NCBI GenBank assembly: GCA_020445785.1
Contig: JAGRFZ010000078.1
Span: 398 to 57,022 of the forward strand
Direction: 5' to 3'
Source of the DNA: Rhodocyclaceae bacterium
GTDB lineage: Bacteria; Pseudomonadota; Gammaproteobacteria; Burkholderiales; Rhodocyclaceae
Length of the DNA: 56,625 nt
The translations under genes were made by a program, and so were the position numbers. This document shows positions 5,033 through 41,113 of this stretch, one piece after another; the first letter of the stretch is position 1, and every line of letters starts with the position of its first letter. The notes under the pieces were generated by a model. It had not been told where the DNA came from and ran no database searches. It worked only from the letters and a program-made list of their open reading frames with translations.

Positions 5033-8656
<3,624 letters not shown>

Positions 8657-8933: not shown

Positions 8934-11705
<2,772 letters not shown>

Positions 11706-21580: not shown

Positions 21581-21620
21581 ACATGCGTCCGCAGCGGCCA
21601 CTTCCCGCCCAACTGCCATC

Positions 21621-25402: not shown

Positions 25403-26365
25403 TCAGACCAGCAGCGCGACGGCCGCCGAGAAGGTGAGGAACGCCAGTGCCGTGGTCAGCAAGACCACCTGTGCGACGCGACCGGTGTCGGCCCCATAGC
25501 GCTCCGCCAGCATCGGCACATTGCTCGCACTCGGCAATGCGGCGGTCAACACCAATACTTTCAGCGCGAACGGGTCGAGCCCGAGGCCGGCACGGATGGC
25601 AAGCGTGCCGACCGCGTACACCAACACCGGATGGAGCAACAGCTTGTACGATGCCACCCACGCGACGCCGACGGGTGCGCGAACGCCGGGGCTCGCGGCA
25701 ACCGCCATGCGCGATCGCGCGAGAACCGCGCCGATCGTGAACAAGGCCGTCGGCGATCCCGCCTCTGCCAGCATGTCGATCGCGCTCGTCAGCGGACCGT
25801 ACAGGACGAAGCCCGAATACGAAGCCAGCCCGCCGAGCCCGATCGCCCACGGCAGCGGATTGACCACGATTCCCCTGAGCGCCTTCTTCGCGGCCTTCGT
25901 GGCTCCGTCCGACCCTGCCGAATCGAGCCGCGACAGCGCAATGCACAGGGACGAAGTAACGACCATGTCGATCGCCAGCGCGACGATCACCGGCCCCGCC
26001 GCGACAGCACCGAGCAGCGATAACAAGAGCGGCATGCCCATGAAACCCGAGTTCGGAAACGCGGCTACCAGGGCGCCGAAGGCGGAATCGTTCCAACCGA
26101 TCGAGCCCCTGCGGGTCGTCACCACCGCGAGCCCCACCATCGCCACCGCACACCCCAGGTAGACCACGAAGGCGCCCACATCGAGCAGCTTGTCGATCGG
26201 CGTGTCCGCAGCGAATCGGTACAGCATGCAGGGCAGCGCGAAGAACAGCACGAAGCCGTTCAGACCCGGGATCGCCTCCAAAGGCAGGGCCCGGCTGCGG
26301 GCCGCGAGATAGCCGCACAGCACCAGCGCGAAGAATGGGAAGGTGACGAGCAGGATCTGTTGCAC
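25403..26365 (-). CDS. AEC-family (auxin efflux carrier-like) membrane transporter
   Basis: 320 residues from a GTG at 26365 (VQQILLVTFPFFALV) with GAGG upstream; longer in-frame sequence upstream is not hydrophobic and is probably not translated. About ten membrane helices in two inverted halves, with family segments NGFVLFFALPCMLYRF, FGALVAAFPNSGFMGMPLLL and LPSASNVPMLAERYG (the conserved helix-breaking NS/N sites). Bacterial relatives export or import small dicarboxylates and other organic acids. It lies 82 bp downstream of the acyl-CoA ligase on the same strand, so it may move the acid that the ligase activates. That role is inferred from position only. Confidence 0.82.
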   Translation of the reverse strand: MQQILLVTFPFFALVLCGYLAARSRALPLEAIPGLNGFVLFFALPCMLYRFAADTPIDKLLDVGAFVVYLGCAVAMVGLAVVTTRRGSIGWNDSAFGALVAAFPNSGFMGMPLLLSLLGAVAAGPVIVALAIDMVVTSSLCIALSRLDSAGSDGATKAAKKALRGIVVNPLPWAIGLGGLASYSGFVLYGPLTSAIDMLAEAGSPTALFTIGAVLARSRMAVAASPGVRAPVGVAWVASYKLLLHPVLVYAVGTLAIRAGLGLDPFALKVLVLTAALPSASNVPMLAERYGADTGRVAQVVLLTTALAFLTFSAAVALLV

Positions 26366-26447
26366 TTCGGCCTCTTGTCGGTGCGCGCCCGCCTTCGGCC
26401 GGGCGCGCTTTTCCGGGGACGTCGGCAGCGGCGCCGCCCCTGCAGGA

Positions 26448-28013
26448 TCAGACCAGGGACACGCTGTCGGTAAAACGCTGGCGCAGCATCCGGTGGAGGA
26501 TCTTGCCGGTGGCCGTGCGCGGCATGTCGGCCTCGTCGATGAAGGCGATCGCGCGTGGGCATTTGAAGGCGGCCAGGCGCTCGCGGCACCACGACTGGAT
26601 CTCCGACGAATCGGCCTGTTGCCCATCGTGCAGCACGATGACCGCCTGCACGGTTTCGCCCCACTTTTCGTGCGGCACGCCGATCACCGCCACGTCCTTG
26701 ACCTTCCGGTGGCTGGCGAGCACGCCCTCGACTTCGGACGGGTAGATGTTTTCGCCACCGCTGATGATCATGTTGCTCTTGCGATCCACCAGCCAGATAT
26801 AGCCGTCCTCGTCGCGGCGCGCCATGTCGCCCACCGAGCACCACTCGCCCCGGAACGCCTGGCCGGTCTTCTCCGGGTTGCGCCAGTAACCGTCGAACAC
26901 GTAGCACGTGCGGGAGTACAGCTCGCCGACTTCGCCGTCCGGCACCTCGACGCCGTTTTCGTCGAGCAGGCGGATCGCACCGCTGCCGGCCCACTCCCTG
27001 CCGACCGAGCCGAGTTTGTGCAACTGCTCGTGGGGACGCAGCAGGGTGACCCATCCAGCCTCGGTAGAACCGTACAGTTCGTAGAGCTTGCCGTTGGTGA
27101 AGTATTCGAGGATCGCGACCTTGGTGGCCTTTCGCGCCGGCGCCGAAGAGATCATCAGCTTGCCGACGCTGGACATGTCGTACTTCGCTTTTACGTCCTC
27201 CGGCAGGGCCAGGATCATGATGTAGTGGGTCGGCACCAGCGACGTGAACGTGACCCGCTCGCGTGCCAGCGTGGCGAGCAAGGCTTCGGGGTCGAAGCTG
27301 CGGCGGTCGTCGACGATGACGGTCGCACCCATGTGCACGAAGGTCGTACCGAAATAGAGGGAGTTGGCGTGGCACATCGGCATCACCAGCAAGCCGGTGT
27401 CGTCCGCCGAGAACCCCATCTCGAGCGCCGTCGCGAGCGCGATCAGGGTGCTGCCGGCATGGCTTCGGATTGCGCCCTTCGGCCGACCGGTGGTGCCCGA
27501 GGTATACATCAGGGCACAGGTCTCGTCCGGACACACCAGCGGCAATGCAATGCGGCGCTGCGCGCCTTCGACCAGTGCATCGTAACTCTGCCAGGCGCTG
27601 GCCGGGCGCTCGTCGAACACGATGTAGCGGTCCGGCGCGATCGCCAGTTCGGCGCGGATCGGCGCCACCGTGTCGACGAATTCCGGGCCGGAAATCAGGG
27701 CCGCAGCCTCGCAGTCGCCGACGATATAGGCGATCTCTGGGGCGCTCAAGCGAAAGTTGAGCGGCACCGCGACGAGGCCGGCACGGGCGAGGCCCACGTA
27801 GATCTCCATCCATTCCACGCAGTTGTAGGCCAGCACCGCCACCCGATCCCCTTTGACCAGTCCGAGACCGAGCAGCGACTGGGCCAGCAGGCTGGCGCGC
27901 CGATCCCACGCCGCGTAGGTCAGTGAACGGCGGGAATCGCGGGTACCGAGTTTTTCCGGATTGCGGCGGGCGTGGGCGGCTACGGCGTCAGAAATGGTCA
28001 GCAGATGGTTCAT
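26448..28013 (-). CDS. Acyl-CoA ligase (AMP-binding, ANL superfamily)
   Basis: 521 residues. Activates a carboxylic acid to acyl-AMP and then acyl-CoA. Motif A3 is YTSGTTGRPKG (about 171-181), A5 YGSTEAGW, A7 SVGDMARRDEDGYIWLVDRKSNMI, A8 GGENIYPSEVE, and the C-terminal catalytic Lys is in RTATGKILHRML. It is transcribed away from the ThDP-enzyme gene across a 203-bp region that holds a candidate GntR operator at 28083-28097. The acid is not known; the size and motifs fit medium-chain or branched acid ligases (such as LvaE or cyclohexanecarboxylate types). Its control appears shared with the ACAD operon at 34995-36191. Confidence 0.87.
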   Translation of the reverse strand: MNHLLTISDAVAAHARRNPEKLGTRDSRRSLTYAAWDRRASLLAQSLLGLGLVKGDRVAVLAYNCVEWMEIYVGLARAGLVAVPLNFRLSAPEIAYIVGDCEAAALISGPEFVDTVAPIRAELAIAPDRYIVFDERPASAWQSYDALVEGAQRRIALPLVCPDETCALMYTSGTTGRPKGAIRSHAGSTLIALATALEMGFSADDTGLLVMPMCHANSLYFGTTFVHMGATVIVDDRRSFDPEALLATLARERVTFTSLVPTHYIMILALPEDVKAKYDMSSVGKLMISSAPARKATKVAILEYFTNGKLYELYGSTEAGWVTLLRPHEQLHKLGSVGREWAGSGAIRLLDENGVEVPDGEVGELYSRTCYVFDGYWRNPEKTGQAFRGEWCSVGDMARRDEDGYIWLVDRKSNMIISGGENIYPSEVEGVLASHRKVKDVAVIGVPHEKWGETVQAVIVLHDGQQADSSEIQSWCRERLAAFKCPRAIAFIDEADMPRTATGKILHRMLRQRFTDSVSLV

Positions 28014-28074: not shown

Positions 28075-28104
28075 TTGTCTTCTGTATTCAGAATGCGCTA
28101 TGCT
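28075..28104 (+). promoter_or_regulatory. Promoter of the ThDP-enzyme gene with an embedded GntR-type operator (site A)
   Basis: TTGTCT (28075-28080) and TATGCT (28099-28104), 18 bp apart, are a plausible sigma-70 promoter 113 bp before the ATG at 28217. Between them lies the near-palindrome TGTATTCAGAATGCG (28083-28097), a TGnATTC-n-GAATnC arrangement shared with sites at 29974 and 36286. A repressor bound there would block polymerase. The intervening region serves both this gene and the divergent ligase gene. Confidence 0.6.
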
Positions 28105-28216: not shown

Positions 28217-29953
28217 ATGAACACCCTGCAGACCATCTCGGATCAATCCGCCGCCGCCGTCATCGCTCGCTTCCTGAAGCGGCGCGGCGTCCAGCGCGTG
28301 TATGCCTTGTGTGGCGGCCACATCATGCCGCTGTGGATGCGCCTCGACGCCGAAGGAATCCGCATCATCGACGTGCGCGACGAACGTGCAGCCGTCTACA
28401 TGGCCCACGCCGAAGCCCAGCTCACCGGCAACTTCGGCGTCGCGCTGGTCACCGCCGGTCCAGGCGTGACCAACGCCATGACCGGCATCGCCAATGCCGA
28501 CGTGGCGCGCGTACCGGTGCTGGTCCTCTCGGGCACGCCACCCCGCGCCCAGGAGAACCGTGGCGCGCTGCAGGACATGGTGCATACCGACCTGGTCCGC
28601 TCCCTCACCCGCTACGCGCGTACCGTGCGCCAGCCCGAGCTGGTGCTGCAGGCGCTGGACGAGGCGGTCTCCTGGGCCCTCGGCGACGGCGGCGAGCCCG
28701 GTCCGGTATATCTCGACTTTCCGGTCGATACGCTGCGCGCCGAGGTGCCCCAGGCCGTCCAGCTTCCGGAACACTTTGCACCGAAGCGCGCGGCCGCCAT
28801 CCCGCCCGATGCCGGCGCCGTTGCGGCCGCCGTGGACCTGCTGTGGTCCGCCAGGCGACCCCTGTTCATCTCCGGCCGAGGTGCCCAGGCTGCCGGCAAG
28901 GCACTCGCCGCCCTACTCTCCCGGCTGGGGGCCCCCTACCTGGACACCGGCGAGAGTCGCGGCCTGGTGCCTGAGGACCATCCCTCGGTGGTCGCCGCGA
29001 TGCGCGGCTCGGTGATGGGCCAGGCCGACCTGGTGGTCACCGTCGGTCGCCGCCTCGACTTCCAGCTCGCCTACGGCTCACCGGCGGTATTCGGCAATGC
29101 CCGCTTCCTGCGCATCGCCGACTGCACCGGGGAATTGCGCGACAACCGGCGCGGCGTGGTCGAACTGATGGCCACCCCGGCGCTTGCCCTCGAGGCGATC
29201 CTCGCTGCAGCCGGCGAGCGCCAGCCGGCGACCGACGTCGATTGGTCCCAAACCCTGCGCGCCAAGCACTGCGATCGCTCCGACAAGCTAGCCGCCTCGA
29301 TGGCCAACGCGCCGTCCGGCAGCGACGGCCTGATGCATCCGAACCGCGTGCTGGCGGCACTGCGCGAGGCGATGCCCGACGATGCCGTGGTCGTCGCCGA
29401 CGGCGGCGACTTTCTGAGCTTCGCCCGGGTCGGCCTGCCGGCCTCGACCTACCTCGACCCGGGGTCGCTGGGCTGCATCGGCGTCGGCACGCCGTTCGGC
29501 GTCGCCGCCAGCCTGGCCTGCCCGGACCGCACGGTGGTCGTCGCCACCGGCGACGGCGCCTTCGGCTTCAATGCGATGGAGCTGGATTCGGCGGTGCGCC
29601 ATCAGGCCCCGGTGCTGGTGGTGGTCGCCAACAACGGCTCGTGGGCGATCGAGGTTCGCGACCAGCAGGAGACCCACGGCAAGGTGGTCGGCACCCGCCT
29701 GCGCTTCTCCGACTATGCCGGCATGGCCCGCGCCTTGGGCATGCATGCCGAACGGGTGGAAAAAGCCGAAGATCTGCCCGCCGCGATCGAGCGGGCGATG
29801 GCCAACCGGCCGGCGCTGCTCGACGTGCTGGTCACGCCGGAGGCGGTGTCGTCCGACGCCAAGAGCGGCCTCGCCTGGGTCCCCGACCTGCAGCCCCTGG
29901 CCGCCTGGGACGAGGCCGAGCGGCGCTGGCGCGCTCGCAGCGACGGCGAGTGA
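28217..29953 (+). CDS. ThDP-dependent acetolactate synthase-like enzyme, candidate 2-hydroxyacyl-CoA lyase
   Basis: 578 residues; the ATG at 28217 has a near-perfect AGAGGAGG ribosome site. Three domains in the order PYR (1-175), central Rossmann-like (about 195-335) and PP (about 375-555). The activating Glu is in RDERAAVYMAHAEAQ. The ThDP/Mg2+ motif is GDGAFGFNAMELDSAVRHQAPVLVVVANN in the PP domain. The family covers acetolactate synthase, oxalyl-CoA decarboxylase and 2-hydroxyacyl-CoA lyase. No small ALS regulatory subunit is nearby and the neighbours are an acyl-CoA ligase and a GntR regulator, so C-C cleavage or formation on a CoA ester or keto acid is more likely than valine biosynthesis. 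Exact substrate unknown. Confidence 0.78.
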   Translation: MNTLQTISDQSAAAVIARFLKRRGVQRVYALCGGHIMPLWMRLDAEGIRIIDVRDERAAVYMAHAEAQLTGNFGVALVTAGPGVTNAMTGIANADVARVPVLVLSGTPPRAQENRGALQDMVHTDLVRSLTRYARTVRQPELVLQALDEAVSWALGDGGEPGPVYLDFPVDTLRAEVPQAVQLPEHFAPKRAAAIPPDAGAVAAAVDLLWSARRPLFISGRGAQAAGKALAALLSRLGAPYLDTGESRGLVPEDHPSVVAAMRGSVMGQADLVVTVGRRLDFQLAYGSPAVFGNARFLRIADCTGELRDNRRGVVELMATPALALEAILAAAGERQPATDVDWSQTLRAKHCDRSDKLAASMANAPSGSDGLMHPNRVLAALREAMPDDAVVVADGGDFLSFARVGLPASTYLDPGSLGCIGVGTPFGVAASLACPDRTVVVATGDGAFGFNAMELDSAVRHQAPVLVVVANNGSWAIEVRDQQETHGKVVGTRLRFSDYAGMARALGMHAERVEKAEDLPAAIERAMANRPALLDVLVTPEAVSSDAKSGLAWVPDLQPLAAWDEAERRWRARSDGE

Positions 29954-29998: not shown

Positions 29999-30727
29999 AT
30001 GAAGCTCCTGGAGACGCAACCCAAGCTGGTCGAACAGGTCTTCGATGCAATCCTCGAAGAGATCACGTCCGGGCGCCTGCGCCCCGGAGCGCGCGTGATC
30101 CAGGAGCAATTGGCCAAGGAACTCGGCGTGTCGCGGCAGCCGGTGCAACAGGCCCTGCTACTGCTGCGCAATCAGGGCGTGCTGCAGGACGCGCCCGGTC
30201 GCGGGCTCCAGGTGGCACCGCTCGACCTGGACTACGTGCGCAACATGTACGACATGCGCGCGGTGGTCGAAGGGCTGGCCTGCCGCCGGGCGGCCGAGGT
30301 CAACGCTGCCAACGCGAAGGCGAGAGGCTCCGCGTTGATCCGCGCCGGCCGCAAGGCGGTCGATAACGGCTCCGTCAACAGCATGATCACGGCCGACCGG
30401 GCGTTCCACCAGATGATCTACGAACTCTCGGAGAATCCACTGGTGGCGCCCATCCTCGAAAGCCAGTGGACCAACACCCAGCGCATCATGGGCGAGGTAC
30501 TGCTGCGCGACGACCAGCCACGCAACGTCTGGAACCAGCACGAAGAGATCCTCGACGCGATTTCGGCCGGCGACGGGGAGAAAGCCGAAGCGCTCGGGCG
30601 TGCCCACATCTCGCGGGCGGCCGACTTCATGATCGAGCGTCTGCGCGAACTCGACCGCTCGGAGGTCGCAGCGGAATCGACGCGCACGCGTCTCGCCGGC
30701 CGGCGCAAGGCAGGCACCTCCCCGTAA
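29999..30727 (+). CDS. GntR-family regulator, FadR subfamily with FCD ligand domain
   Basis: 242 residues. The winged helix-turn-helix occupies about 8-75 (EEITSGRLRPGARVIQEQLAKELGVSRQPVQQALLLLRNQGV). The all-helical FCD domain follows (about 82-225) with its metal ligands in DRAFHQMIYE, NQHEEILDAI and RAHISRA. FCD regulators are usually repressors released by a small carboxylate or CoA-related ligand. The gene starts 45 bp after the ThDP-enzyme gene on the same strand, with its own operator in between. Palindromes similar to this operator occur upstream of the ThDP enzyme/ligase pair and the acyl-CoA dehydrogenase operon, so it is the likely repressor of both. Confidence 0.9.
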   Translation: MKLLETQPKLVEQVFDAILEEITSGRLRPGARVIQEQLAKELGVSRQPVQQALLLLRNQGVLQDAPGRGLQVAPLDLDYVRNMYDMRAVVEGLACRRAAEVNAANAKARGSALIRAGRKAVDNGSVNSMITADRAFHQMIYELSENPLVAPILESQWTNTQRIMGEVLLRDDQPRNVWNQHEEILDAISAGDGEKAEALGRAHISRAADFMIERLRELDRSEVAAESTRTRLAGRRKAGTSP

Positions 30728-32030
<1,303 letters not shown>

Positions 32031-32142: not shown

Positions 32143-32820
32143 TCAGATGGTGGAGCCCAGGCCCGACGGCAGGTGCCCGGTGCAATTGAAACGTTTCAGT
32201 CCGCGCCGTCCGTTCGAGAACAGCACTTCGGTCAGTGACGCGTTCTGGATGACCCGAATCAGCGCCGTCCATTGTTGATCCGGCAGGTCCAGCACCTCAC
32301 AAACCACCGCGCAGATCACGCCCGCCGAGCTCACCGCGATGAGGTGACGGCCGCCCGGCTCGCCGCCGCCGTCGGTCACGCCGTCCAGCCAGCGGCAGAT
32401 CCGCCGGCGGAATTCCCGGTAGGACTCGCGCCCGGCAATCTCGAGCTCGCCGCGCGCCCAGGCCTGGTAGGCCGCCTCGTAGCAGCGCAGCTGCTCCGCC
32501 CGGGGCGGTGCGTCCGGGCCCTGCATCGGTCGGCCGAACAATTCGCCGGCTGCGGCGAGGATCTCCTCGCCCTCGGCGAACTCGTCGATACCCTCGTCGA
32601 ACTGTAGCCCGAGGCTCAGGCCGGCGGCTTTCGACAGCTCGCTCGCGGTGTCGGCGTGGCGGCGCCGCGGCCCGTGGCGCAGCGCGCTCCAACGTCCGGC
32701 GCTGCCCCCTGCCCAGGCGCCGAGGGCACGGCTCTGCGCGACTCCGAGTTCGGACAGCCGGTCGTAGCGATCGACCGCGAATGATGCTTGGCCGTGGCGG
32801 ACCAGCATCAGCAAGCTCAT
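32143..32820 (-). CDS. Histidine phosphatase-family protein, last gene of the ACAD operon
   Basis: 225 residues. The catalytic motif LVRHGQAS lies at residues 6-13, a second Arg in LRHGPRRRHADTA and the second catalytic His in the VSSAGVICA region (unusually SSAG rather than SHGG, so the second His is missing or displaced). Enzymes of this branch hydrolyse phosphate monoesters through a phospho-His. It starts within the stop codon of the preceding DUF6285-like gene (ATGA overlap), so it is the fifth, translationally coupled member of the operon. In this setting it could remove phosphate from a phosphoacyl intermediate or a side product. The altered second motif leaves activity uncertain. Confidence 0.8.
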   Translation of the reverse strand: MSLLMLVRHGQASFAVDRYDRLSELGVAQSRALGAWAGGSAGRWSALRHGPRRRHADTASELSKAAGLSLGLQFDEGIDEFAEGEEILAAAGELFGRPMQGPDAPPRAEQLRCYEAAYQAWARGELEIAGRESYREFRRRICRWLDGVTDGGGEPGGRHLIAVSSAGVICAVVCEVLDLPDQQWTALIRVIQNASLTEVLFSNGRRGLKRFNCTGHLPSGLGSTI

Positions 32821-33191
32821 CGCGCCGCTTTCGGCAGGGCCTTCGGATTGCTCTCGGCAAGCCGGCGCCGGCCCTGCGCCCTGAGTTGCGTGAAGATCGC
32901 GCTGCGGGCCGCCTGCCCCGGATCGCCGCGCCCGGCGCGGATCTCGCGCGCCAGCCGCCGATTGGCGTCGGCCAACGTGACCTTCGAATCGTCCAGCAAG
33001 CCCTGCAGCTCGGCCAACTCCTGGCGCTCCGGCTGGTCGCCATTGGCCAACTGACGCTCGGCGATCGACATGGCGTTGATCGACATCAGCAGCGCATGCC
33101 TGCGCTCGGCAGGCAGCGCCGGCAGCACCTGATCGCGCAGCAGCCGCCGGGCGCAAGCCAGCAGCGCCTCGCCCCTGGGTTGTTCGCGCAT
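32817..33191 (-). CDS. Small DUF6285-like protein, probable partner of the APH-like kinase
   Basis: 124 residues, helical, soluble, basic towards the C-terminus (MREQPRGEALLACARRLLRDQVLPALPAERRHALLMSINAMSIAERQL). This resembles the small DUF6285 proteins that accompany APH-like kinases beside ACAD10/11-type dehydrogenases. In the Pseudomonas putida levulinate operon the small protein LvaB is needed with the kinase LvaA; equating the two is my inference. Its ATG shares one base with the kinase stop codon (TGATG) and its own stop overlaps the phosphatase start, so expression of all three is coupled. Confidence 0.7.
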   Translation of the reverse strand: MREQPRGEALLACARRLLRDQVLPALPAERRHALLMSINAMSIAERQLANGDQPERQELAELQGLLDDSKVTLADANRRLAREIRAGRGDPGQAARSAIFTQLRAQGRRRLAESNPKALPKAAR

Positions 33192-34207
33192 CAGTCGTCC
33201 TCCGTCATGTTCAGAATCTCCCACTCCAGCTCGGGCACGATGTGCCCGGTGAGCGCCAGCAGCAGCGAATCTTCTTCGCCCGAACAGAAGCGCTCGGCCT
33301 GCTGGACGGCGATCACCGCCCAGTTCACGTGGGCCATCACCTCCCAATAATGCACCGCGTCGCGGTCCAGCGTGCGACCCGATTCCTGCTCGTAGCCGTG
33401 GTAGAAATCTTCGCGGGCGCCGATGCCACCGGCCTCGGCCGAGACCTTGCCGAAGCGCCAGCACTTGGAACAGAACCAGCCGATGTCTTCCAGCGGATCG
33501 CTCCAGCCGGCGAACTCCCAGTCGAGAATGCCGGTCAGCCCGTGCTCGTCGACCATGTAGTTGCCAGTGCGGTAGTCGCGGTGGGTCAGGGTCACGAGGT
33601 CGCGCGGCGGCGCATGTCGCTCGAGCCAGCGCAGGCCCCACTCGATCGCCGGATAGGCGGTGTGATGCGCGTCGAGAAAGGCGCGATGCTGGGCGATCCA
33701 GTGCCGCGCCGGCGCTTCGTCGTAGGTCGGCAGGAAGTCTAGGGCAGTCTGCGGCGGGCGCACCGAGTGAATGCGGGCCAACTCGCGCCCGAGGCGTTCG
33801 GCGAGTTGAACCCGGTCGGCGCCGTAGGCGTCGTCCCTGACCAGCAGGTGGCCTGCGGCGGTGCCACCGATGCGCCGCATCAGGAAGAACGGGCGGCCGA
33901 TGACCGAGGGGTCGTCGCACAGCCAAAGGGGTTCGGGCACGGCAACGCCGGCCTCGAATACGGTCTTCAGCAGGGCGAACTCCTGCGCCCGCCCGTGACT
34001 GATCGCGACGCCGGCGGTCGGCGAGTCGCAGCGCAGCACGCATTCGTGGCGCCCGGCCCTTGCCCCGCCGGAGATCTCCAGATCCACCAGCCAATTCTCC
34101 TGCACCGCGCCGCCCGACAGTTGACGCACGTCGCGCACGGCGGCCGACGCAGCGCCGGTCGCGCCGGCGACGAAGGCCTCGATCGCCTGGCGTGTCTTGT
34201 CGTCCAT
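33191..34207 (-). CDS. APH-like phosphotransferase (ACAD10/11 kinase type)
   Basis: 338 residues from MDDKTRQAIEAF. The aminoglycoside-phosphotransferase fold is shown by a Lys/Arg-containing N-lobe (LSGGAVQENWLVDL, HECVLRCD), Brenner motif THRDYRTGNYMV (catalytic Asp, Asn) and metal-binding ILDWEFAGWSDPLEDIGWF. It is the subfamily that in animals is fused to ACAD10/ACAD11 and in bacteria (LvaA) phosphorylates the 4-hydroxyl of a hydroxyacyl-CoA. It is not expected to give antibiotic resistance. The gene lies 8 bp downstream of the SDR and overlaps the next gene. A CoA ester kinase role is inferred from subfamily and neighbours. Confidence 0.85.
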   Translation of the reverse strand: MDDKTRQAIEAFVAGATGAASAAVRDVRQLSGGAVQENWLVDLEISGGARAGRHECVLRCDSPTAGVAISHGRAQEFALLKTVFEAGVAVPEPLWLCDDPSVIGRPFFLMRRIGGTAAGHLLVRDDAYGADRVQLAERLGRELARIHSVRPPQTALDFLPTYDEAPARHWIAQHRAFLDAHHTAYPAIEWGLRWLERHAPPRDLVTLTHRDYRTGNYMVDEHGLTGILDWEFAGWSDPLEDIGWFCSKCWRFGKVSAEAGGIGAREDFYHGYEQESGRTLDRDAVHYWEVMAHVNWAVIAVQQAERFCSGEEDSLLLALTGHIVPELEWEILNMTEDD

Positions 34208-34215
34208 GGCTGGCC

Positions 34216-34998
34216 TCACAGCCCGCTGACCAGATGAGCGCGATCGACCGCGACGCTGGCGCCGGACATGGCGCCACCGGCGCCGGAGGCGAGCAGCAGC
34301 AGCGGGCCGTCGAGGTCGCTCAGCTCGCTGAAGCGGCGGCTGGGAATCCGCATGCGCAGCTTGTCCCCGGCCTCGCTGCCGAGGAAATCGCGATTCAGGT
34401 CGGTAACCACGTAGCCGGGCAGCAAGGCATTGACCCGGATGTCGTGGCGGGCGAGTTCCAGCGCCAAGGCCTTGGTCAGCTGCAGCACGCCGGCCTTCGA
34501 AACCGCATAGGGGGCAACGCCGCCACCGACGCGCTCGCCGAGGATGGATGCGATATTGACGATGCTGCCGCCCTTGCCGGCCTCCACCATGCGGCGCGCC
34601 GCCTCGGTGGCCACCAGCCAGCATCCCTTGAGGTTGGGGTCGACAACGGCGTCCCAGTCGGCCTCGGTCTGCTGCAGCACCGCCTTGGTGACGGTCTGGC
34701 CCGCGTTGTTGATGACCACGTCCGGCACCCCGGCCAGTTCCGCCGCCCGGTCGAAGGCGACCCGCACCGCGTCACCATCGGTGACGTCGATCGCCACGGC
34801 ACAGGCCCGCCCCCCGGCAGTTGCGATCTCGGAGACGAGATCCTGCAGCTTGTCGACTCGCCGCGCGCTGACGACGACCCGGGCGCCGGCGCGTGCGAGC
34901 AGCGACGCAAAGTGGCGGCCGAGGCCGCTGGATGCACCGGTGACGAGGGCGACCTTGCCCTTCAGCGAGAACATCTCGCCGATCGATTGGATGCTCAT
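34216..34998 (-). CDS. Short-chain dehydrogenase/reductase
   Basis: 260 residues. Classical SDR: cofactor motif TGASSGLG (about 20-27), NNAG (about 97-100), catalytic Ser in NIASILGE and YAVSK. The residues after the second beta strand (SARRVDKL) suggest NADP(H) or relaxed use. It begins inside the stop codon of the acyl-CoA dehydrogenase gene (ATGA). In the levulinate pathway LvaD, an SDR in the same kind of operon, oxidises a 3-hydroxyacyl intermediate; a similar step, or interconversion of keto and hydroxy acyl groups, is plausible here. Confidence 0.9.
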   Translation of the reverse strand: MSIQSIGEMFSLKGKVALVTGASSGLGRHFASLLARAGARVVVSARRVDKLQDLVSEIATAGGRACAVAIDVTDGDAVRVAFDRAAELAGVPDVVINNAGQTVTKAVLQQTEADWDAVVDPNLKGCWLVATEAARRMVEAGKGGSIVNIASILGERVGGGVAPYAVSKAGVLQLTKALALELARHDIRVNALLPGYVVTDLNRDFLGSEAGDKLRMRIPSRRFSELSDLDGPLLLLASGAGGAMSGASVAVDRAHLVSGL

Positions 34999-36191
34999 CG
35001 GCTGCTCGCTCCCGTGCTTTCGGTCGGCGCCTTCCGCCCCGCGACCAGTTTCCTGCCGAGGTTGTAGCGGTGCACTTCGCTCGGACCGTCGTAGATCCGG
35101 AAGGCGCGCATGTCGGCGAAGATGCGCGGCAGGATGGTCTCGTGGGTGACGCCCTGCCCGCCCAGGATCTGCACGCTGCGATCGACCACCCGCCACTCCG
35201 CTTCCGAGCACACCACCTTGGCGCGGCTCGACTCGAAGTTGCAGCGCCGGCCCTGGTCGAGCAGCCAGGCGGTGTGCCAGATGTGCAGACGGGCGGTGTG
35301 CAGGTCCATCTCGTTGTCGGCAAGCATGAAGCTGACACCTTCGTGCTCGCCGAGGATGCGGCCGAAGGCCTGGCGGCGGCGCGCATAGTCGAGGGCAACG
35401 TCGTGGGCCCGCCGCGCCTGGCCGAGCCAGCGCATGCAGTGGGTCAGGCGCGCCGGCGCCAGCCGCACCTGGGCATAACGGAAGCCCTTGCCGATCTCAC
35501 CCAACACGTCGCTGGCCGGCACCCGCAGGTCGTTGAAGCGCAACACCCCGTGACCGCCGGTGAAGCAGGTATCGAGCGCATCCATCGTGCGCACCCGTTC
35601 GAGGCCCGGGCGATCCATGTCGGACAGGAACATCGTCGCCGAACCATCCTCCATCTTCGCCATGATGATGGCGAACGACGCCCCCTCGGCACCGGTGATG
35701 AACCACTTGCTGCCGTTGATGACGTAGTCGTCGCCGTCGCGCACCGCGGTGGTGGCCAGCAGCGACGGGTCGGCACCCGCGCCCGGCGGCGGCTCGGTCA
35801 TGGCGAAGCACGAGCGCGTCTGGCCCTGCACCAGCGGCTTCAGCCAGCGCGCCTTCTGCGGTGCCGACGCGACCGCCTCCATCAGATGGATGTTGCCTTC
35901 GTCGGGAGCATGAATGTTGAGCGCGGTCGGACCGAGCGTCGAGTACCCCGCCTCCTCGAAGACCACCGCCTTTTCCACGTGGGAGAGGCCCAATCCGCCC
36001 ATCTCGCGGGAGGCGTGCGGCGTCAGCAGGCCCGCTGCCCGAGCCATGCCGACCAGTTCCTCGCGCAGCGATTCGCCGGGGCCGTGCTGGGTCTGGCGCG
36101 GGTCGTTCTCCAAAGGGATCACCGCCTCCGCGATGAAACTGCGGACACGCTCCTGCAGTTCCTGCAATCGAGGGCTGAGTGAAAAGTCCAT
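34995..36191 (-). CDS. Acyl-CoA dehydrogenase of the ACAD10/11 type
   Basis: 398 residues, FAD flavoprotein. N-terminal helical domain (1-125), FAD-binding motif CFAMTEPPPGAGADPS and KWFITGAEG, C-terminal four-helix domain with RRQAFGRILGEHEGV and QILGGQGVTHE. The catalytic segment reads IYDGPSEVHRYNL; the usual EGT is DGP, a variant I associate with the ACAD10/11 and LvaC group. LvaC removes phosphate from a 4-phosphoacyl-CoA to make the enoyl-CoA. First gene of a five-gene minus-strand operon (ACAD, SDR, kinase, DUF6285-like, phosphatase) with a near-consensus promoter containing a GntR-type site. The mechanism here is inferred from the motif and the kinase neighbour. Confidence 0.9.
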   Translation of the reverse strand: MDFSLSPRLQELQERVRSFIAEAVIPLENDPRQTQHGPGESLREELVGMARAAGLLTPHASREMGGLGLSHVEKAVVFEEAGYSTLGPTALNIHAPDEGNIHLMEAVASAPQKARWLKPLVQGQTRSCFAMTEPPPGAGADPSLLATTAVRDGDDYVINGSKWFITGAEGASFAIIMAKMEDGSATMFLSDMDRPGLERVRTMDALDTCFTGGHGVLRFNDLRVPASDVLGEIGKGFRYAQVRLAPARLTHCMRWLGQARRAHDVALDYARRRQAFGRILGEHEGVSFMLADNEMDLHTARLHIWHTAWLLDQGRRCNFESSRAKVVCSEAEWRVVDRSVQILGGQGVTHETILPRIFADMRAFRIYDGPSEVHRYNLGRKLVAGRKAPTESTGASSR

Positions 36192-36285
36192 GCCTGCTCC
36201 TTTCCGTTGGATTGCTTCATCCTTCGCCGTGAACCGCAGGGATCACGGAACTTGGCCCCGCAATGCAACCGGGGAAGCGGCTTTT

Positions 36286-36300
36286 CGAATTCAGAATTCT
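36286..36300 (-). promoter_or_regulatory. Second GntR-type operator upstream of the ACAD operon (site B-prime)
   Basis: CGAATTCAGAATTCT contains the same 9-bp core ATTCAGAAT as site A at 28086-28094. Its centre is 32 bp (three helical turns) from site B, between the promoter and the ACAD start, so two repressor dimers could lie on one face of the DNA. Confidence 0.5.
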
Positions 36301-36315
36301 TTAATTGACGAGTTA

Positions 36316-36343
36316 ATTGTATTCAGTATTCACTTGATGTCAA
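36316..36343 (-). promoter_or_regulatory. Promoter of the ACAD operon with embedded GntR-type operator (site B)
   Basis: On the minus strand TTGACA (36343-36338) and TACAAT (36321-36316) are 16 bp apart, close to the sigma-70 consensus. The palindrome TGTATTCAGTATTCA (36318-36332) fills the spacer and overlaps the -10. It matches sites A and C in the TGTATT half. The transcription start would be about 120 bp before the ATG at 36191. Confidence 0.7.
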
Positions 36344-36682
36344 GCCGCTCGAGCGTCACCCGGGCAACCGGCAGCATCCCGGGCCGGGCACCCCGCGACA
36401 GCGCGAATCGAGCTCTCGCCGGCAATGTGCGTTGACTGCAAGGTGGCAGCCCGCGATTTCCGCCGGCCGCATCGCGAGCTGCGTCCGGCGCAGCACACAG
36501 ACGCCAGCACCCCAGCGAGCGGTCTTCCGGCCGCACGCCGCCCGTGCGTGCACTACGGCTACCGCCATCGGAAGAAACGGTGGAATCGGCCCGGCTGCGG
36601 ATGCCGCTCCGGTGCGGGCCGGCGCCGCGGCGGGGCGCTGGCTCTTTGCATTACGGCAGGCCGAGGTCTGCCTTCGACGGGG
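36344..36682. other. Intergenic region without a convincing gene
   Basis: 339 bp between the ACAD promoter and the stop of the ABC-exporter adaptor gene, which lies upstream on the same strand. GC-rich; small open frames on both strands lack motifs and ribosome sites. No clear terminator hairpin with a U-run was seen. Confidence 0.55.
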
Positions 36683-37879
36683 TCAGCGCATCACCACCCG
36701 CGCGCCGACGTGCAGGCGATCGTCCGGGTGTACGACGACGATCTCGCCGGCTTCGACGCCGGCCAGCACCTGCGCCGCGAGACCACTCTTGCGGCCGATG
36801 TCGATCGGCCGCTTGTGGGCGACGCCGTCGTCGACGATGAAGGCCGCCCAGCCCTCGCCGTCACGAAACAGGCTGCTGGCGGGAATCTGCAGCACGTCGT
36901 CACCGTGCCAGAGGATGAAGCTGGCTTCGACCCGATAGCCGTCGCCGAGGCGCTGCCACAGCTCCCGCGGCGAGGCGAATTCAACGATCACCCACACCCG
37001 CTGTTCCTCTACGCCGAGCGCGGAGACCTTGGTGAAGCCGACCGGCTCCACCCGGCGCACGACGCCACGGAGGGGCTGCTCCTGCCCCCAGCGCTCGAAC
37101 ACCACCGGCGTACCGGCTGCAACGCGTACGGCGTCGGCCGACAACAGGTCCACCTCCACCTCCAAGTCGCCGGGATCGCCGATCTCGAGCAGGGCCTGCC
37201 CGATCTCGACCGGCCCCTCGCTTTTGCGCGGGATCCTCAGCACGCGGCCATCCACCGGCGATCGCACCTCGACCGGCTCGGCACTGCCGCCGGCACCGGC
37301 GAAGTTCAGCGCCGCACGTGCCGCTTCGAGTTCATGGCGGGTGGTGCGCACCGCGAACTTCGCCGAGCGCAGTTCCGCATCGGCGCGGTCGGCCTCGGCC
37401 CGGGCGCGATCCTCGGCGTCCTGCGTAACGTGGCCGGTGCCGCGCAATTCGCGCATGCGTTCGAAATTCTTGTGGGCGAGCTCGGCGTCGGCCAGCGCCG
37501 CCTTTTCGTTTTCGGCAACGGCACTCAGGGTGTCGCGCGCGGCCGCTACCCGCTGCTCGGCCTCGGTCCGTCGCCGCACGTCCAGCACCTCGGCACGCAG
37601 CGGCTCCAGCGATACGACGGTCGCGCCGCTCGCCACCGCATCCCCCACATCCAGTGCGATCCGGCGCGCGTAACCGGCGACCGGGGCGGTGATCACGTAG
37701 CGATCGACCACCCGCGTGCGCCCCTCCTGCTCGATCGTGACCTGCAGCGGCGCACGACCGACGACACCGACATCCACGTCCACCGGCTGCGTCCGAAATC
37801 CGGAATAGAGCCCCCAAGCCAACAGGATGGAGAGCACGCCGGCGGCGATGCCCCGACGCCATGCCACTTCGTGTTTCAT
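36683..37879 (-). CDS. Periplasmic adaptor (HlyD/MacA-like) of an ABC exporter
   Basis: 398 residues. One N-terminal membrane helix (about 11-27) anchors a periplasmic protein with a split lipoyl domain (APVAGYARRIALDVGDAVASGATVVSLEP and SPVDGRVLRIPRKSEGPVEIGQALLEIGD). A long alpha-hairpin lies between (about 100-195, VRRRTEAEQRVAAARDTLSAVAENEKAALADAELAHKNFERM) and a beta-barrel follows. This is the membrane-fusion protein architecture. It is the third gene of a three-gene operon, 4 bp after the permease. Together they would move a lipid, peptide or drug; substrate unknown. No outer-membrane TolC gene is adjacent. Confidence 0.88.
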   Translation of the reverse strand: MKHEVAWRRGIAAGVLSILLAWGLYSGFRTQPVDVDVGVVGRAPLQVTIEQEGRTRVVDRYVITAPVAGYARRIALDVGDAVASGATVVSLEPLRAEVLDVRRRTEAEQRVAAARDTLSAVAENEKAALADAELAHKNFERMRELRGTGHVTQDAEDRARAEADRADAELRSAKFAVRTTRHELEAARAALNFAGAGGSAEPVEVRSPVDGRVLRIPRKSEGPVEIGQALLEIGDPGDLEVEVDLLSADAVRVAAGTPVVFERWGQEQPLRGVVRRVEPVGFTKVSALGVEEQRVWVIVEFASPRELWQRLGDGYRVEASFILWHGDDVLQIPASSLFRDGEGWAAFIVDDGVAHKRPIDIGRKSGLAAQVLAGVEAGEIVVVHPDDRLHVGARVVMR

Positions 37880-37883
37880 CGCT

Positions 37884-40247
37884 TCACTCCGCTGCCTTCA
37901 ACACCGCCACCAGGTCCAGCCGATCCAACTGGCGGCGCACCATCAGCCCGGACAGCAGCGCGGAGACCAGCACCACCGTCACCGCGAAGGCGTAGGTCTG
38001 CGGCACCAGCACCACGGGCACCCGGTACAAGTCGCTCTGCATCGTCTGGGCGATGTAGTAGCACATCCAGTTGCCGAGCCAGAGCCCGAGCGGAATCGCG
38101 AGCAAGGTCAGCAGCCCCAGCTCGCCCAGCAGGATGTAGGCGATCTCGCCGCGCGTGAAGCCGAGCACGCGCAGGCTCGCCAGCTCCCGCCCGTTCTCGG
38201 CCAGGGCGATCTGGGCATTGTTGTAGATCACGCCGAAGGCGATGACGACCGCGAACACCGTCGCCACATAGGTGAAGAACAGCATCGATTCGTCCATCGT
38301 GCGGTTGAAATTGCGGATCTCCTGGCGCCGCTCGGCAACGCCCGCGACGCGCGGCATGTCCCGCAGGCGCAACAGCAGTGGCTGCAGCGAACCGTCCTCG
38401 ATGCCGAGGTAGGCGCCCGAGATCGTCGGCCCCTCCCGTAGTAGGCGGTTCAGCGCGGCCAGTTCCATGTAGCCGGACACGCCCAGGAACTCGTTCACCA
38501 GCCCGGCGACGGTCACCTCGCGCGTCGGTCGGTTGCCTTCGAGCACCTCGACGACGATGCGATCACCGACCCGCACATCGAGCATCTCGCCGAGGAAGTC
38601 GGTGAGCAGGATGCCCTCCGCCGGCAGCACCACCGGCTGCAGCGCCACATCGAGCAGGCGCTGAATGTCGCCGCCGGGCTCGTAGCCGCGCACACCGCTG
38701 CGATACTCCCGATGGCCGTGGCGAAAGCGCACCGGAACGGCCCGGTAGGGCTCGACATGGCGCACGCCGGCGAGCCCAGCGAGGTCGTAGCGGGCCAGGA
38801 AGGAGGTGGGGTCGGTGAAGGTCACCGACAAATCCTCGCGCTGCATCAGGCCGAACTGCACGTACACCATGTAGCCGACCGTATCGCGCTGGAACAGGCC
38901 GGTCAGGATCAGACCGCAGGCCAGCGCGATGCCGAGCGCGGTGAGGGCCGATTTGAAGGCGCGACGCTGGATGTGGCGGATGATCATGCGCGCCGGTTGC
39001 GACAGCCAGCGCTTGAGGCCGAGCCGCTCGATCCAGGTTTCGCGGTAGGTCGGCGGCGGCTCCGGCCGCATCGCCACCGCGGGCCGCAGATTGGCGGCAC
39101 GCCACACCGCCAGGAAGGTGCCGAGGCCCGCGGCGAGCAAACTGGCGATCGCGGCTTCGGCCACCACTGCCGGCGACAGGCGGAAACTGAGGTAGGGGAA
39201 GTGATAAAACTCCGAAAAGATGCCGGCGAGTTCCCGGCCCAGCCAGGTTCCGAGCACGGCACCGCCGGCGATGCCGAGGCCGACGATCACCGCAACCGAG
39301 CCGAGGTAGTGGACGAACACCTGAAGATTGCCGTAGCCGAAGGCCTTGAGGGTGGCGATCTGCTCTCGCTGCATGGCCACCTGGCGCCCGATCACGACGT
39401 TCAGCAGGAAGGCCGCGATCCCCAGGAACATGGCCGGAAACAGGCGCCCGAGAGTGGCGAGCTGTTCCAACTCCTGGCTCAGAAAGCGGTGCGAAATCTG
39501 GTCCTCGCGGCCGTAGGCGCCGAGGCCACCGTAGGGCCGGATCAGCTCATCGACGCGCTCGATCACCGCCTGCACGCTGGCGCCCCGGTAGAGGCTCAGC
39601 GTCAGATCATTGAACGCATCGTGCAGATCGTAGGCCTGCCCCAGGGCCCGGCGCCCCATCCACAGGACTCCGTAGCGCTTGCTGTCGGGAAACACGGAGC
39701 CGGGACGCAATTGCTGGATGAACTCGGGGGACAGGGCCGTGCCGACCAGGGTCAGAGTCTGGCGGCGGCCGTTGAGGATGGCATCGAAGCGGCTGCCCGG
39801 GCGCAGCCGATGGGCCGCCGCGAAGGTCTCGCTGGCCACCACCTCGTCCCCCTGCCCCGCCGCCGGCAAGCGTCCAGCCCGCAGGTGCAGGCCATTGAGC
39901 CTCGGCGCGCCACGGTCGGGCAGCGAGGTCACCACCGCCGCCACCGGCTCCGGAAACGCCGGCATGTCGAGCCGCACCTGCACCGCGACCCGGGTCTGAA
40001 CCTGGTCGACGCCTGGAATCTCGGCGATGCGCCGACGCAGGCTCTCGGGCGCACGCTTGAGCGAAGCGAACACGTCGGCGAAGCGGTATTCGCGATAGTA
40101 GGCCGCCTGGGTCGTGCCCAGTGCATCCAGCGTGGCCAGGAACATGACGTAGTTGCCGATGCCGCACATCACCACCAGCGCGATCGCCAGCGCCTGGCCC
40201 TTCATTCGCCACAGATCGCGCCAGAGTTTGTGGTGAATGGCCCGCAT
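37884..40247 (-). CDS. ABC transporter permease with two FtsX domains
   Basis: 787 residues from MRAIHHKLWRDLWRM (ATG at 40247). An N-terminal helix (ALAIALVVMCGIGNYVMFLATLDAL) leads to a large periplasmic domain. Then come two FtsX units of membrane helices: about 265-400 with FPAMFLGIAAFLLNVVIGRQVAMQREQIATLKAFG, and 660-780 with FFTYVATVFAVVIAFGVIYNNAQIALAENGRELASLRVLGF. The duplicated FtsX arrangement is that of large MacB-superfamily permeases that work with lipid or lipoprotein cargo. It follows the ATPase gene by 5 bp. Function as an exporter with the downstream adaptor is likely. Confidence 0.88.
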   Translation of the reverse strand: MRAIHHKLWRDLWRMKGQALAIALVVMCGIGNYVMFLATLDALGTTQAAYYREYRFADVFASLKRAPESLRRRIAEIPGVDQVQTRVAVQVRLDMPAFPEPVAAVVTSLPDRGAPRLNGLHLRAGRLPAAGQGDEVVASETFAAAHRLRPGSRFDAILNGRRQTLTLVGTALSPEFIQQLRPGSVFPDSKRYGVLWMGRRALGQAYDLHDAFNDLTLSLYRGASVQAVIERVDELIRPYGGLGAYGREDQISHRFLSQELEQLATLGRLFPAMFLGIAAFLLNVVIGRQVAMQREQIATLKAFGYGNLQVFVHYLGSVAVIVGLGIAGGAVLGTWLGRELAGIFSEFYHFPYLSFRLSPAVVAEAAIASLLAAGLGTFLAVWRAANLRPAVAMRPEPPPTYRETWIERLGLKRWLSQPARMIIRHIQRRAFKSALTALGIALACGLILTGLFQRDTVGYMVYVQFGLMQREDLSVTFTDPTSFLARYDLAGLAGVRHVEPYRAVPVRFRHGHREYRSGVRGYEPGGDIQRLLDVALQPVVLPAEGILLTDFLGEMLDVRVGDRIVVEVLEGNRPTREVTVAGLVNEFLGVSGYMELAALNRLLREGPTISGAYLGIEDGSLQPLLLRLRDMPRVAGVAERRQEIRNFNRTMDESMLFFTYVATVFAVVIAFGVIYNNAQIALAENGRELASLRVLGFTRGEIAYILLGELGLLTLLAIPLGLWLGNWMCYYIAQTMQSDLYRVPVVLVPQTYAFAVTVVLVSALLSGLMVRRQLDRLDLVAVLKAAE

Positions 40248-40252
40248 CGCGA

Positions 40253-41113
40253 CTACCAGCTGAGCTCGGCCGGGGATTTCTTCTCGGCGTTGGTGGCAAC
40301 GCTGACCACCCGCCCATCGCCGAAGTGCACGACGCGGTCCGCCATCTCGGCGATGACCGAGTTGTGGGTGATGACGGCGGTGGTGGTCCCCAACTCCCGA
40401 TTCACCCGCGCGATCACGTCCAGCACCAACACGCCGGTCGGCGCGTCGAGCGCTCCGGTGGGCTCGTCGCACAACAACACCTGCGGGCGCTTCGACACGG
40501 CGCGGGCGATCGCCACGCGCTGCTGTTCGCCGCCCGAGAGCTGGGTCGGGAAGTGATCGAGTCGCCCCCCCAGGCCGACCATCGCCAGGGCCTCTTCCGG
40601 CGCCATCGGTGCCGCCGCGATTTCGGTGACGAGGGCCACATTCTCGCGCGCCGTCAGGCTGGGGATCAGGTTGTAGAACTGGAACACGAAGCCCACGTGC
40701 TCGCGCCGGTAGCGGGTCATCGCGGCGTCGTCGAACACCGAAAGATCGTGGTCGCCGTAGCGCACGCTGCCGCGGCTCGGCGCGTCGAGACCACCGAGAA
40801 TGTTGAGCAGGGTCGACTTGCCGCTGCCGGACGGGCCGAGGAGGACCACCAGTTCGCCCTCGAACAGGTCGAGATCGACGCCCCTCAAGGCCTCGACCTG
40901 GACCTCGCCCATCTGGTAGGTCTTGGACAGGCCGCGGATCTCGAAGATCGGGGGCGGTGCCTCGGCGGAAGGAAGGGCCGGCCTATTCCTCGCAACTCGC
41001 CCCCTCGCCGGGCCACCCGCCTGTCGAGCCGGCGTCGACGAGCCCGCGCGCCGATTCTGCGCGACCGGGACCGCGTCCTGCTTCTCGTCGAACTCTCCGG
41101 CTGCACGATTCAT
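40253..41113 (-). CDS. ABC transporter ATPase (MacB/LolD-like)
   Basis: 286 residues from MNRAAGEF at 41113; in-frame ATGs at 41170 and 41230 would lengthen the disordered N-terminus. The first ~60 residues are a Pro/Arg-rich tail not seen in LolD. The NBD has Walker [11 protein letters not shown]-loop [12 protein letters not shown], signature [14 protein letters not shown], Walker [13 protein letters not shown] and H-loop VITHN. Order ATPase, permease, adaptor and spacings of 4-5 bp indicate one operon. It powers the exporter at the inner membrane. Confidence 0.88.

What the first reader, a model, noticed from the sequence alone, without database searches (positions are those of the whole stretch)
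32143..36191. Kinase-assisted hydroxyacyl-CoA degradation operon (ACAD10/11 or Lva-like) with an added histidine phosphatase
The APH-like kinase, small DUF6285-like protein, SDR and acyl-CoA dehydrogenase carrying a DGPxEVH motif are the core of the levulinate pathway (LvaA-D in P. putida) and of mammalian ACAD10/11, which phosphorylate a 4-hydroxyacyl-CoA and then eliminate phosphate. Here gene order differs, the operon is GntR-regulated rather than sigma-54-regulated, and a histidine phosphatase is translationally coupled as fifth gene. The phosphatase may be a repair or control enzyme not described for the pathway.
Basis: partly seen in the sequence, partly recalled or inferred. Interest (0 to 1): 0.75.

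Follow-up and report, generated by a model that had tools for sequence, protein, structure and literature searches.

The report
Levulinate-type kinase operon with phosphatase
This looks like a bacterial operon for burning 4-hydroxy acids by first tagging them with phosphate, and it carries an extra phosphatase-like protein with an altered active site that may clean up or restrain the tagging step.

Summary
The five genes are real, coupled and conserved in order: LvaC-type ACAD, LvaD-type SDR, LvaA-type kinase, LvaB (DUF6285) and a histidine phosphatase (HP). The ACAD is 72% identical to the LvaC of an operon in which NCBI names LvaB, lies in its clade and keeps the phosphate-binding residues reported for ACAD11. 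GntR control is supported: a sigma-70-type promoter carries paired GAATNCNGAATNC sites, and the motif recurs at promoters of neighbouring lyase, CoA-ligase, transporter and alcohol-oxidation genes in relatives. An HP gene in an lva cluster is not new (Pseudomonas citronellolis, 2019; untested). New here: (i) this HP belongs to a subfamily whose second catalytic His is Ser in 47 of 47 sampled members, while nucleophile His, both Arg and a Glu stay invariant; (ii) this subfamily and a second, His-complete HP family each occur beside kinases of both pathway branches (LvaC-type and ACAD10/11-type). Best reading: a partner phosphatase that removes or limits phospho-acyl-CoA. Main rival: a regulatory pseudophosphatase, like the degenerate HAD domain of ACAD10. 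No activity was tested; 24 of 47 subfamily members have no such kinase nearby, and most Lva-type loci sampled lack any HP.

The parts
34995..36191 (-). LvaC-type acyl-CoA dehydrogenase family protein (398 aa); RLAPARLTHCMR and DGPSEVH match R626, R631, H634, R637 and D753 of mouse ACAD11
34216..34998 (-). LvaD-type short-chain dehydrogenase (260 aa), 62% identical to the SDR of the L241 lva operon
33191..34207 (-). LvaA-type APH-fold kinase (338 aa) with HRDYRTGN and DWE
32817..33191 (-). DUF6285 protein (124 aa), 50-51% identical to a protein that NCBI names 4-hydroxypentanoyl-CoA kinase subunit LvaB
32143..32820 (-). Histidine phosphatase branch 1 protein (225 aa), Ser-type: R8, H9, R54, E80 kept, second catalytic His replaced by S165
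36316..36343 (-). Sigma-70-type promoter TTGACA-16-TACAAT before the ACAD
   Evidence: 11 of 12 consensus positions; shuffles mean 0.0
36319..36331 (-). Operator-like site GAATACTGAATAC, between -35 and -10 and overlapping the -10
36287..36299 (-). Operator-like site GAATTCTGAATTC, 32 bp from the first
29999..30727 (+). GntR family regulator with FCD domain, the likely repressor
28217..29953 (+). 2-hydroxyacyl-CoA lyase (NF058623, 818.7 bits over a cut-off of 600)
26448..28013 (-). AMP-forming acyl-CoA ligase, divergent from the lyase
25403..26626 (-). AEC-type membrane transport protein (start codon uncertain)
28077..28096 (.). Overlapping one-mismatch copies of the operator motif between the ligase and lyase genes

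Best explanation
An Lva-type operon for 4-hydroxyacyl-CoA (or, through the SDR, 4-oxoacyl-CoA). The SDR reduces the 4-oxo group; the kinase with its LvaB partner phosphorylates the 4-hydroxyl; the LvaC-type flavoenzyme eliminates phosphate to give a 2-enoyl-CoA for beta-oxidation. GntR represses the operon together with the neighbouring ligase and lyase genes. The HP is a partner of the kinase step: most likely it dephosphorylates phospho-acyl-CoA (or the free phospho-acid) that the ACAD cannot use or that accumulates. Shown by sequence: family membership, active-site residues of kinase and ACAD, coupling, promoter, operator-like pairs, and recurrent placement of HP genes beside such kinases. 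Inferred from named homologues: the reactions. Inferred only: the HP's substrate, that it is catalytic, and that GntR binds the sites. By part, my odds are about 0.9 for the pathway class, 0.8 for GntR control and 0.5 for a catalytic HP; the figure below is for the whole.
For: ACAD 72%, SDR 62%, kinase 51% and LvaB 51% identical to the L241 lva operon; ACAD in the LvaC clade with the ACAD11 phosphate-binding residues. Paired operator sites on the -10 of a sigma-70-type promoter, repeated in relatives. Two HP families, each beside kinases of both pathway branches: Ser-type with LvaC-type (16 loci) and with ACAD10/11-type ACADs (13 of 47 survey loci); His-type in Lva operons of Stutzerimonas, Azospirillum and Thermus and near ACAD10/11-type ACADs in 3 of 7 survey loci. 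APH kinase near the Ser-type HP in 23 of 47 loci against 0.024 expected per locus. The His-type keeps all catalytic residues (10 of 10); the Ser-type keeps R8, H9, R54 and E80 in 47 of 47.
Against: The second catalytic His, present in 21 of 21 control HPs, is Ser in this subfamily. 24 of 47 Ser-type loci show no APH kinase within about 6 kb (at least 3 of the 47 stretches are cut short by contig ends). HP is optional: none of 25 DUF6285 loci of other genomes and none of 10 other LvaC-like loci of the order has either HP type nearby. The HP is the fastest-diverging gene of the operon (56% to Azoarcus KH32C against 88, 82, 79 and 67% for the others). By eye on the alignment, the two arginines that PMC12440821 models as CoA contacts in the ACAD11 kinase (R86, R176) do not seem conserved in this kinase; numbering there was uncertain. 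The operon itself lacks LvaE, LvaF, LvaG and a sigma-54 regulator.
Confidence: 0.5

Rival explanations
1. The HP is a pseudophosphatase that binds phospho-acyl-CoA or the kinase and restrains the kinase, as the degenerate HAD domain of mammalian ACAD10 does.
For: Second catalytic His replaced by Ser in 47 of 47; translationally coupled next to LvaB and kinase. PMC11342911 section 8: mutating the remaining Asp of the ACAD10 HAD domain raises kinase activity, with negligible phosphatase activity.
Against: The nucleophile His, both Arg and Glu are invariant in the Ser-type, and the His-type HP in the same genomic place is complete, which favours catalysis.
Confidence: 0.3
2. The HP takes part in the main route, removing the phosphate of 4-phosphoacyl-CoA during conversion to 3-hydroxyacyl-CoA, as suggested for P. 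citronellolis.
For: Proposed in PMC6692424 (passages).
Against: The ACAD alone converts 4-phosphoacyl-CoA in ACAD10/11 (PMC12440821 section 6), the ACAD here keeps those residues, and most Lva-type loci sampled have no HP nearby.
Confidence: 0.07
3. The HP acts on a different substrate of the same hydroxy-acid catabolism and is only co-regulated.
For: 24 of 47 Ser-type loci have no APH kinase nearby.
Against: Strong enrichment beside the kinase and placement in the same coupled operon.
Confidence: 0.13
4. Compatible with the best explanation, on the wider cluster: the neighbouring 2-hydroxyacyl-CoA lyase serves the alternative beta/alpha-oxidation route of 4-hydroxy acids, so that both routes known from mammals lie in one regulon, fed by oxidation of a diol or hydroxy-alcohol.
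For: Lyase, GntR and ligase lie beside the operon in 7 of 15 loci with enough flank; in G556 the lyase lies directly upstream of ACAD-SDR-kinase on the same strand. The motif also stands before Rieske/PQQ-dehydrogenase/aldehyde-dehydrogenase genes, and formate dehydrogenase genes lie about 3 kb further on in Azoarcus KH32C. Two mammalian routes: PMC12440821 section 6, PMC4693237 passages.
Against: 8 of 15 loci lack the lyase nearby; no substrate is known.
Confidence: 0.35

Closest known systems
lva operon (lvaRABCDEFG) of Pseudomonas, levulinate catabolism
   Same: Kinase, LvaB (DUF6285), ACAD and SDR at 51, 51, 72 and 62% identity to the L241 operon; same ACAD motif RLAPARLTHCMR
   Different: Order ACAD-SDR-kinase-LvaB-HP; no LvaR/E/F/G in the operon; sigma-70-type promoter with GntR-type operator pair; HP added
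lva clusters with a histidine phosphatase (P. citronellolis, PMC6692424; Stutzerimonas stutzeri plasmid, L242)
   Same: Phosphatase-fold gene next to kinase/LvaB in an lva cluster
   Different: The Stutzerimonas HP belongs to another family that keeps the second catalytic His; the P. citronellolis HP sequence was not seen. Regulator there is of the sigma-54 type
ACAD10 / ACAD11 (mammals)
   Same: Kinase plus ACAD chemistry, phosphate-binding residues; ACAD10 also has a degenerate phosphatase-fold domain next to its kinase
   Different: Separate polypeptides here; HAD fold in ACAD10, histidine-phosphatase fold here; the ACAD belongs to the LvaC rather than the ACAD10/11-type clade
Bacterial ACAD10/11-type operons (HP, kinase, SDR, ACAD; e.g. 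Caballeronia L101, Deinococcus L098)
   Same: Ser-type HP beside kinase, SDR and ACAD
   Different: ACAD with RLGPGR[IV]HHCMR; no DUF6285 seen; only 28-38% identity gene by gene
Histidine phosphatases such as PGAM5 and phosphoserine phosphatase
   Same: Fold (Foldseek E about 1e-12 to 1e-11), RHG, second Arg, Glu
   Different: Second catalytic His is Ser; about 20% identity

Membership tests
LvaABCD pathway enzymes | ACAD residues for 4-phosphoacyl-CoA and catalytic Asp | tested here: met
   RLAPARLTHCMR and DGPSEVH
LvaABCD pathway enzymes | ACAD groups with LvaC in a tree | tested here: met
   12-row clade (100/100) with the L241 ACAD; no KT2440 or mammalian row was in the tree, and groups were labelled by motif
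LvaABCD pathway enzymes | LvaB (DUF6285) next to the kinase | tested here: met
LvaABCD pathway enzymes | Kinase catalytic residues (HxDxxxxN, DWE) | tested here: met
lva operon as in Pseudomonas | Sigma-54-type regulator and lvaE/F/G in the cluster | tested here: not met
   absent from the operon; an unrelated AMP ligase and transporter lie beyond GntR and lyase; no -24/-12-like site at 36000-36700
LvaABCD pathway enzymes | Phosphorylation of 4-hydroxyacyl-CoA and phosphate elimination | not testable with these tools
   needs purified proteins
ACAD10/11 | Kinase and ACAD fused in one chain | tested here: not met
   separate genes
Histidine phosphatase superfamily, branch 1 | Pfam model and fold | tested here: met
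Histidine phosphatase superfamily, branch 1 | RHG nucleophile and second Arg | tested here: met
Histidine phosphatase superfamily, branch 1 | Second catalytic His | tested here: not met
   Ser in 47 of 47 subfamily members; His in 21 of 21 controls. It is a member by fold; catalytic activity is open
GntR regulon | Shared operator-like motif at operon and neighbour promoters, not found where GntR is missing nearby | tested here: met
   exceptions: G002 keeps the sites though no GntR gene was seen in about 4.9 kb to the contig end; Limnobacter P1 has only one-mismatch sites before its ACAD
GntR regulon | Binding of GntR to the sites | not testable with these tools
   needs purified protein

The most novel reading that the evidence does not exclude
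Control of the phospho-acyl-CoA made by 4-hydroxyacyl-CoA kinases is a general need that has been met by repeated recruitment of phosphatase folds: a degenerate HAD domain in ACAD10, a His-complete HP in some bacteria, and here an HP whose active site is fixed in a Ser form and acts as a phospho-acyl-CoA sensor or specialised repair phosphatase coupled to the kinase.
Probability: 0.4. Interest if true: 0.8.

Novelty: new variant of a known kind. Interest (0 to 1): 0.58.

Why it matters
Why ACAD10 carries a broken phosphatase domain beside its kinase is open (PMC11342911 sections 8 and 10). Bacteria offer stand-alone, separable versions of a similar arrangement, some with a complete and some with an altered active site, so the question becomes testable with small purified proteins. 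The operator set also outlines a regulon (alcohol oxidation, transport, CoA ligase, 2-hydroxyacyl-CoA lyase, Lva enzymes) that may point to the natural substrate of this pathway in relatives of Azoarcus and Aromatoleum.

Tried and rejected
Considered and rejected: that the ACAD is an ordinary beta-oxidation enzyme (it has the phosphate-binding set and groups with LvaC); that GntR is merely a bystander (shared operator-like sites); that the HP is a chance neighbour (fixed order in 16 loci; kinase enrichment).

Led nowhere: no NCBIfam model over its cut-off for ACAD, SDR, kinase, LvaB or HP; a single-sequence search of solved structures gave only weak hits for the HP and one irrelevant hit for DUF6285; paper searches for the HP-kinase-ACAD cluster returned no paper. 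Of 13 places of the exact operator motif in the whole genome, 2 are this promoter; of the other 11 only the one on C158 was followed, and none of 19 Azoarcus island proteins matched around it. The exact motif also occurs at places with no link to this operon, e.g. near the Ser-type HP of G197 (L148) and in L192, L288 and L289. I could not check whether P. citronellolis really lacks lvaB: its ORF numbers skip from 0390 to 0393.

Limits: in the HP tree each HP family is one clade (S 77 rows, 100/100; H 3 rows, 100/99), but deep branches are weak (21/76), so 'recruited at least twice' is inference. The ACAD tree warns of long branches that meet, including the Thermus ACAD. The position of the second catalytic His rests on alignments and on the predicted fold, where S165 lies between strand 159-164 and helix 166-176. 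Control HPs: the 30 loci given were the best of a longer match list; 5 had no match to the S-type model and were dropped, 4 were S-type themselves, 21 remained. HP survey: of 49 places, 47 were refetched; the own place and G043 had been read before and also have Ser. H-type survey: of 37 matches only the 7 over 99 bits were followed; the next best had 55.6 bits. The 3 H-type HPs in Lva operons on plasmids came from DUF6285 and kinase searches, not from an unbiased survey. The binomial takes loci as independent; by genus it is 15 of 32.
Full report
Observation. The window carries five minus-strand genes at 32143-36191 that overlap or nearly touch: ACAD, SDR, APH kinase, DUF6285 and HP. The same five in the same order were seen in 16 loci of different genome records including this one (Rhodocyclaceae MAGs, Aromatoleum, Azoarcus KH32C, Limnobacter, a Burkholderiales MAG and a MAG labelled Gammaproteobacteria that is nearly identical to a Limnobacter one); one more, G029, has no SDR between ACAD and kinase. 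In G004 the HP is cut by a contig end. The arrangement is therefore not chance.

What the enzymes are. On a P. aeruginosa plasmid NCBI names an operon member LvaB; around it lie a PrpR-type regulator, kinase, ACAD, SDR, acyl-CoA synthetase, DUF485 protein and acetate symporter, the lva layout (the layout of P. putida is as described in PMC6692424, passages). The window proteins are 51% (kinase), 51% (LvaB), 72% (ACAD) and 62% (SDR) identical to it. The ACAD reads RLAPARLTHCMR and DGPSEVH, which matches the spacing of R626, R631, H634, R637 and D753 of mouse ACAD11 (PMC12440821, section 7; alignment). In a 78-row tree the LvaC group (20 rows, 96/91), the ACAD10/11-type group (36 rows, 100/99), both labelled by motif, and other ACADs separate; the window lies in a 12-row clade (100/100) with the plasmid LvaC. 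Mammalian and KT2440 sequences were not in the tree, which also warns of some long branches. The kinase was judged by identity and motifs only; two arginines modelled as CoA contacts in the ACAD11 kinase (R86, R176) did not seem conserved when I read the alignment by eye.

Regulation. A sigma-70-type promoter TTGACA-16-TACAAT (36343-36316) stands before the ACAD. GAATNCNGAATNC occurs at two sites there, 32 bp apart, one overlapping the -10; the window has 3 exact matches counting both strands against 0.11 expected, and none of 100 shuffles reached 3. One-mismatch copies sit between the divergent ligase and lyase genes. Paired sites 29-32 bp apart stand before the ACAD in G005, G001 (one with a mismatch), G002 and G004, and before the TRAP-transporter genes, or their remnant, in A. 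evansii, A. toluvorans, A. tolulyticum and Azoarcus KH32C. Further copies stand at lyase/ligase promoters (exact in five loci, one mismatch in the window and G001) and before Rieske/PQQ-dehydrogenase/aldehyde-dehydrogenase genes. G029 and the six Limnobacter-type loci without GntR and lyase nearby have no exact site, only scattered one-mismatch matches in some; Limnobacter P1, which has GntR and lyase, has an exact site at the lyase promoter and one-mismatch sites before its ACAD. In the whole genome the exact motif occurs at 13 places, paired only here. No -24/-12-like site lies near the promoter. GntR control is well supported, though binding is unproved.

Neighbourhood. GntR plus 2-hydroxyacyl-CoA lyase, with a divergent acyl-CoA ligase, lie beside the operon in 7 of the 15 loci with at least about 3 kb of flank; 8 of 15 lack them, and 2 more of the 17 loci end too soon. 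In G556, which has an LvaC-type ACAD but no DUF6285 or HP detected, the lyase lies directly upstream of ACAD-SDR-kinase on the same strand. On the Azoarcus plasmid the stretch continues with PQQ-dehydrogenase and aldehyde dehydrogenase genes and, about 3 kb further, formate dehydrogenase genes. In mammals 4-hydroxy acids take a phosphorylation route and a beta/alpha-oxidation route (PMC12440821 section 6 part 1; PMC4693237 passages). That the lyase serves the second route here is inference.

The phosphatase. The HP keeps R8, H9, R54 and E80, but the second catalytic His is Ser. All 47 refetched relatives from a 299-genome sample (49 places in 47 genomes) have the same state; 21 of 21 other HP1 proteins from 20 of those genomes keep His. 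The family is sharply bounded: the weakest of the 49 matches has E 3.3e-43 under a limit of 1e-20. The AlphaFold2 model is confident (mean pLDDT 90.7) and resembles PGAM5, phosphoserine phosphatases and others at about 20% identity. 23 of 47 loci (15 of 32 genera) have an APH kinase within about 6 kb, against 0.024 expected per locus; 13 of 47 (10 genera) also have an ACAD with RLGPGR[IV]HHCMR, the form seen in ACAD11. 24 of 47 show no such kinase nearby, among them most loci of families f26 and f70.

A second HP family. Lva-type operons of Stutzerimonas, Azospirillum and Thermus thermophilus HB8 carry an HP gene directly after LvaB that keeps the second His. Seven further clear relatives appeared in 398 genomes; all keep His (10 of 10 in all). 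3 of the 7 sit beside a kinase, with an ACAD10/11-type ACAD next to it in two and about 5 kb away in the third; 2 of 7 have a kinase-DUF6285 pair about 9-10 kb away; 2 have neither. So both HP families occur with both branches of the pathway. HP is nevertheless optional: 0 of 25 DUF6285 loci of other genomes (within about 8 kb; 6 of them with an LvaC-type ACAD) and 0 of 10 other LvaC-like loci sampled from the order have either type nearby. Three of eight annotated plasmid loci with a DUF6285 gene besides Azoarcus (L241-L248) have an HP.

Mechanism. Because one of the two HP families looks fully catalytic and both take a similar place, the common task is most likely phosphatase-like: removing phospho-acyl-CoA, or its free acid, that the ACAD cannot process. 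The main rival is a regulatory role, supported by the Ser substitution and by ACAD10, whose degenerate HAD domain restrains the kinase (PMC11342911 section 8). I give about 0.5 to a catalytic clean-up role and 0.3 to regulation.

Prior art. PMC6692424 (passages) reports a histidine phosphatase gene in the P. citronellolis lva cluster and calls for its functional analysis. PMC12440821 (abstract, section 6 part 1, section 7, passages) and PMC11342911 (abstract, sections 8 and 10 part 1, passages) do not contain the words LvaB, DUF6285 or histidine phosphatase in the main text. In the listings of searches I saw no report of the Ser-type HP or of HP genes with ACAD10/11-type operons; only open-licence PMC papers are covered, most listed papers were not opened, and the original lva paper (Rand et al. 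2017) was not read.

Noticed in passing
window 31050-32030 (+): An aldo/keto reductase gene lies between GntR and the 3' end of the operon; it was not found at that place in the other loci compared.
   Followed up: partly
window 18958-22754 (+): Genes like a sodium-pumping decarboxylase (mmdA-like alpha, biotin carrier, beta subunit; the beta model is over its cut-off).
   Followed up: no
window 36683-41230 (-): MacAB-like export set (membrane fusion protein, permease frame, ATP-binding protein) upstream of the ACAD on the same strand.
   Followed up: no
L244 8972-9600: Azotobacter salinestris lva cluster: a weak His-type HP match (24 bits) at the LvaB gene and the gap before LvaC, perhaps a remnant or chance.
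   Followed up: no
L052-L064: DUF6285 next to APH kinases in loci whose nearest ACADs mostly lack the phosphate-binding motif, or with no ACAD seen; DUF6285 may serve other hydroxyacyl kinases.
   Followed up: no
L294 (G556), about 5370-10113: Lyase directly upstream of LvaC-type ACAD, SDR and kinase on the same strand, without DUF6285 or HP detected; an exact operator-like match lies at 14420 near a GntR gene.
   Followed up: partly
L264 (G001) 1820-8096: A second ligase, Rieske, PQQ-dehydrogenase and aldehyde dehydrogenase set with an exact operator-like site in front, besides the one in L263.
   Followed up: partly
L158, L159, L162, L164, L169, L170, L173, L176: In family f33, 8 of 11 Ser-type HP loci have an APH kinase and an SDR but no ACAD within about 6 kb.
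   Followed up: no
PMC6692424, P. citronellolis LA18T cluster: The paper says lvaB is missing, but ORF numbers skip from 0390 (LvaA) to 0393 (HP); in the Stutzerimonas relative an LvaB gene lies exactly there.
   Followed up: no
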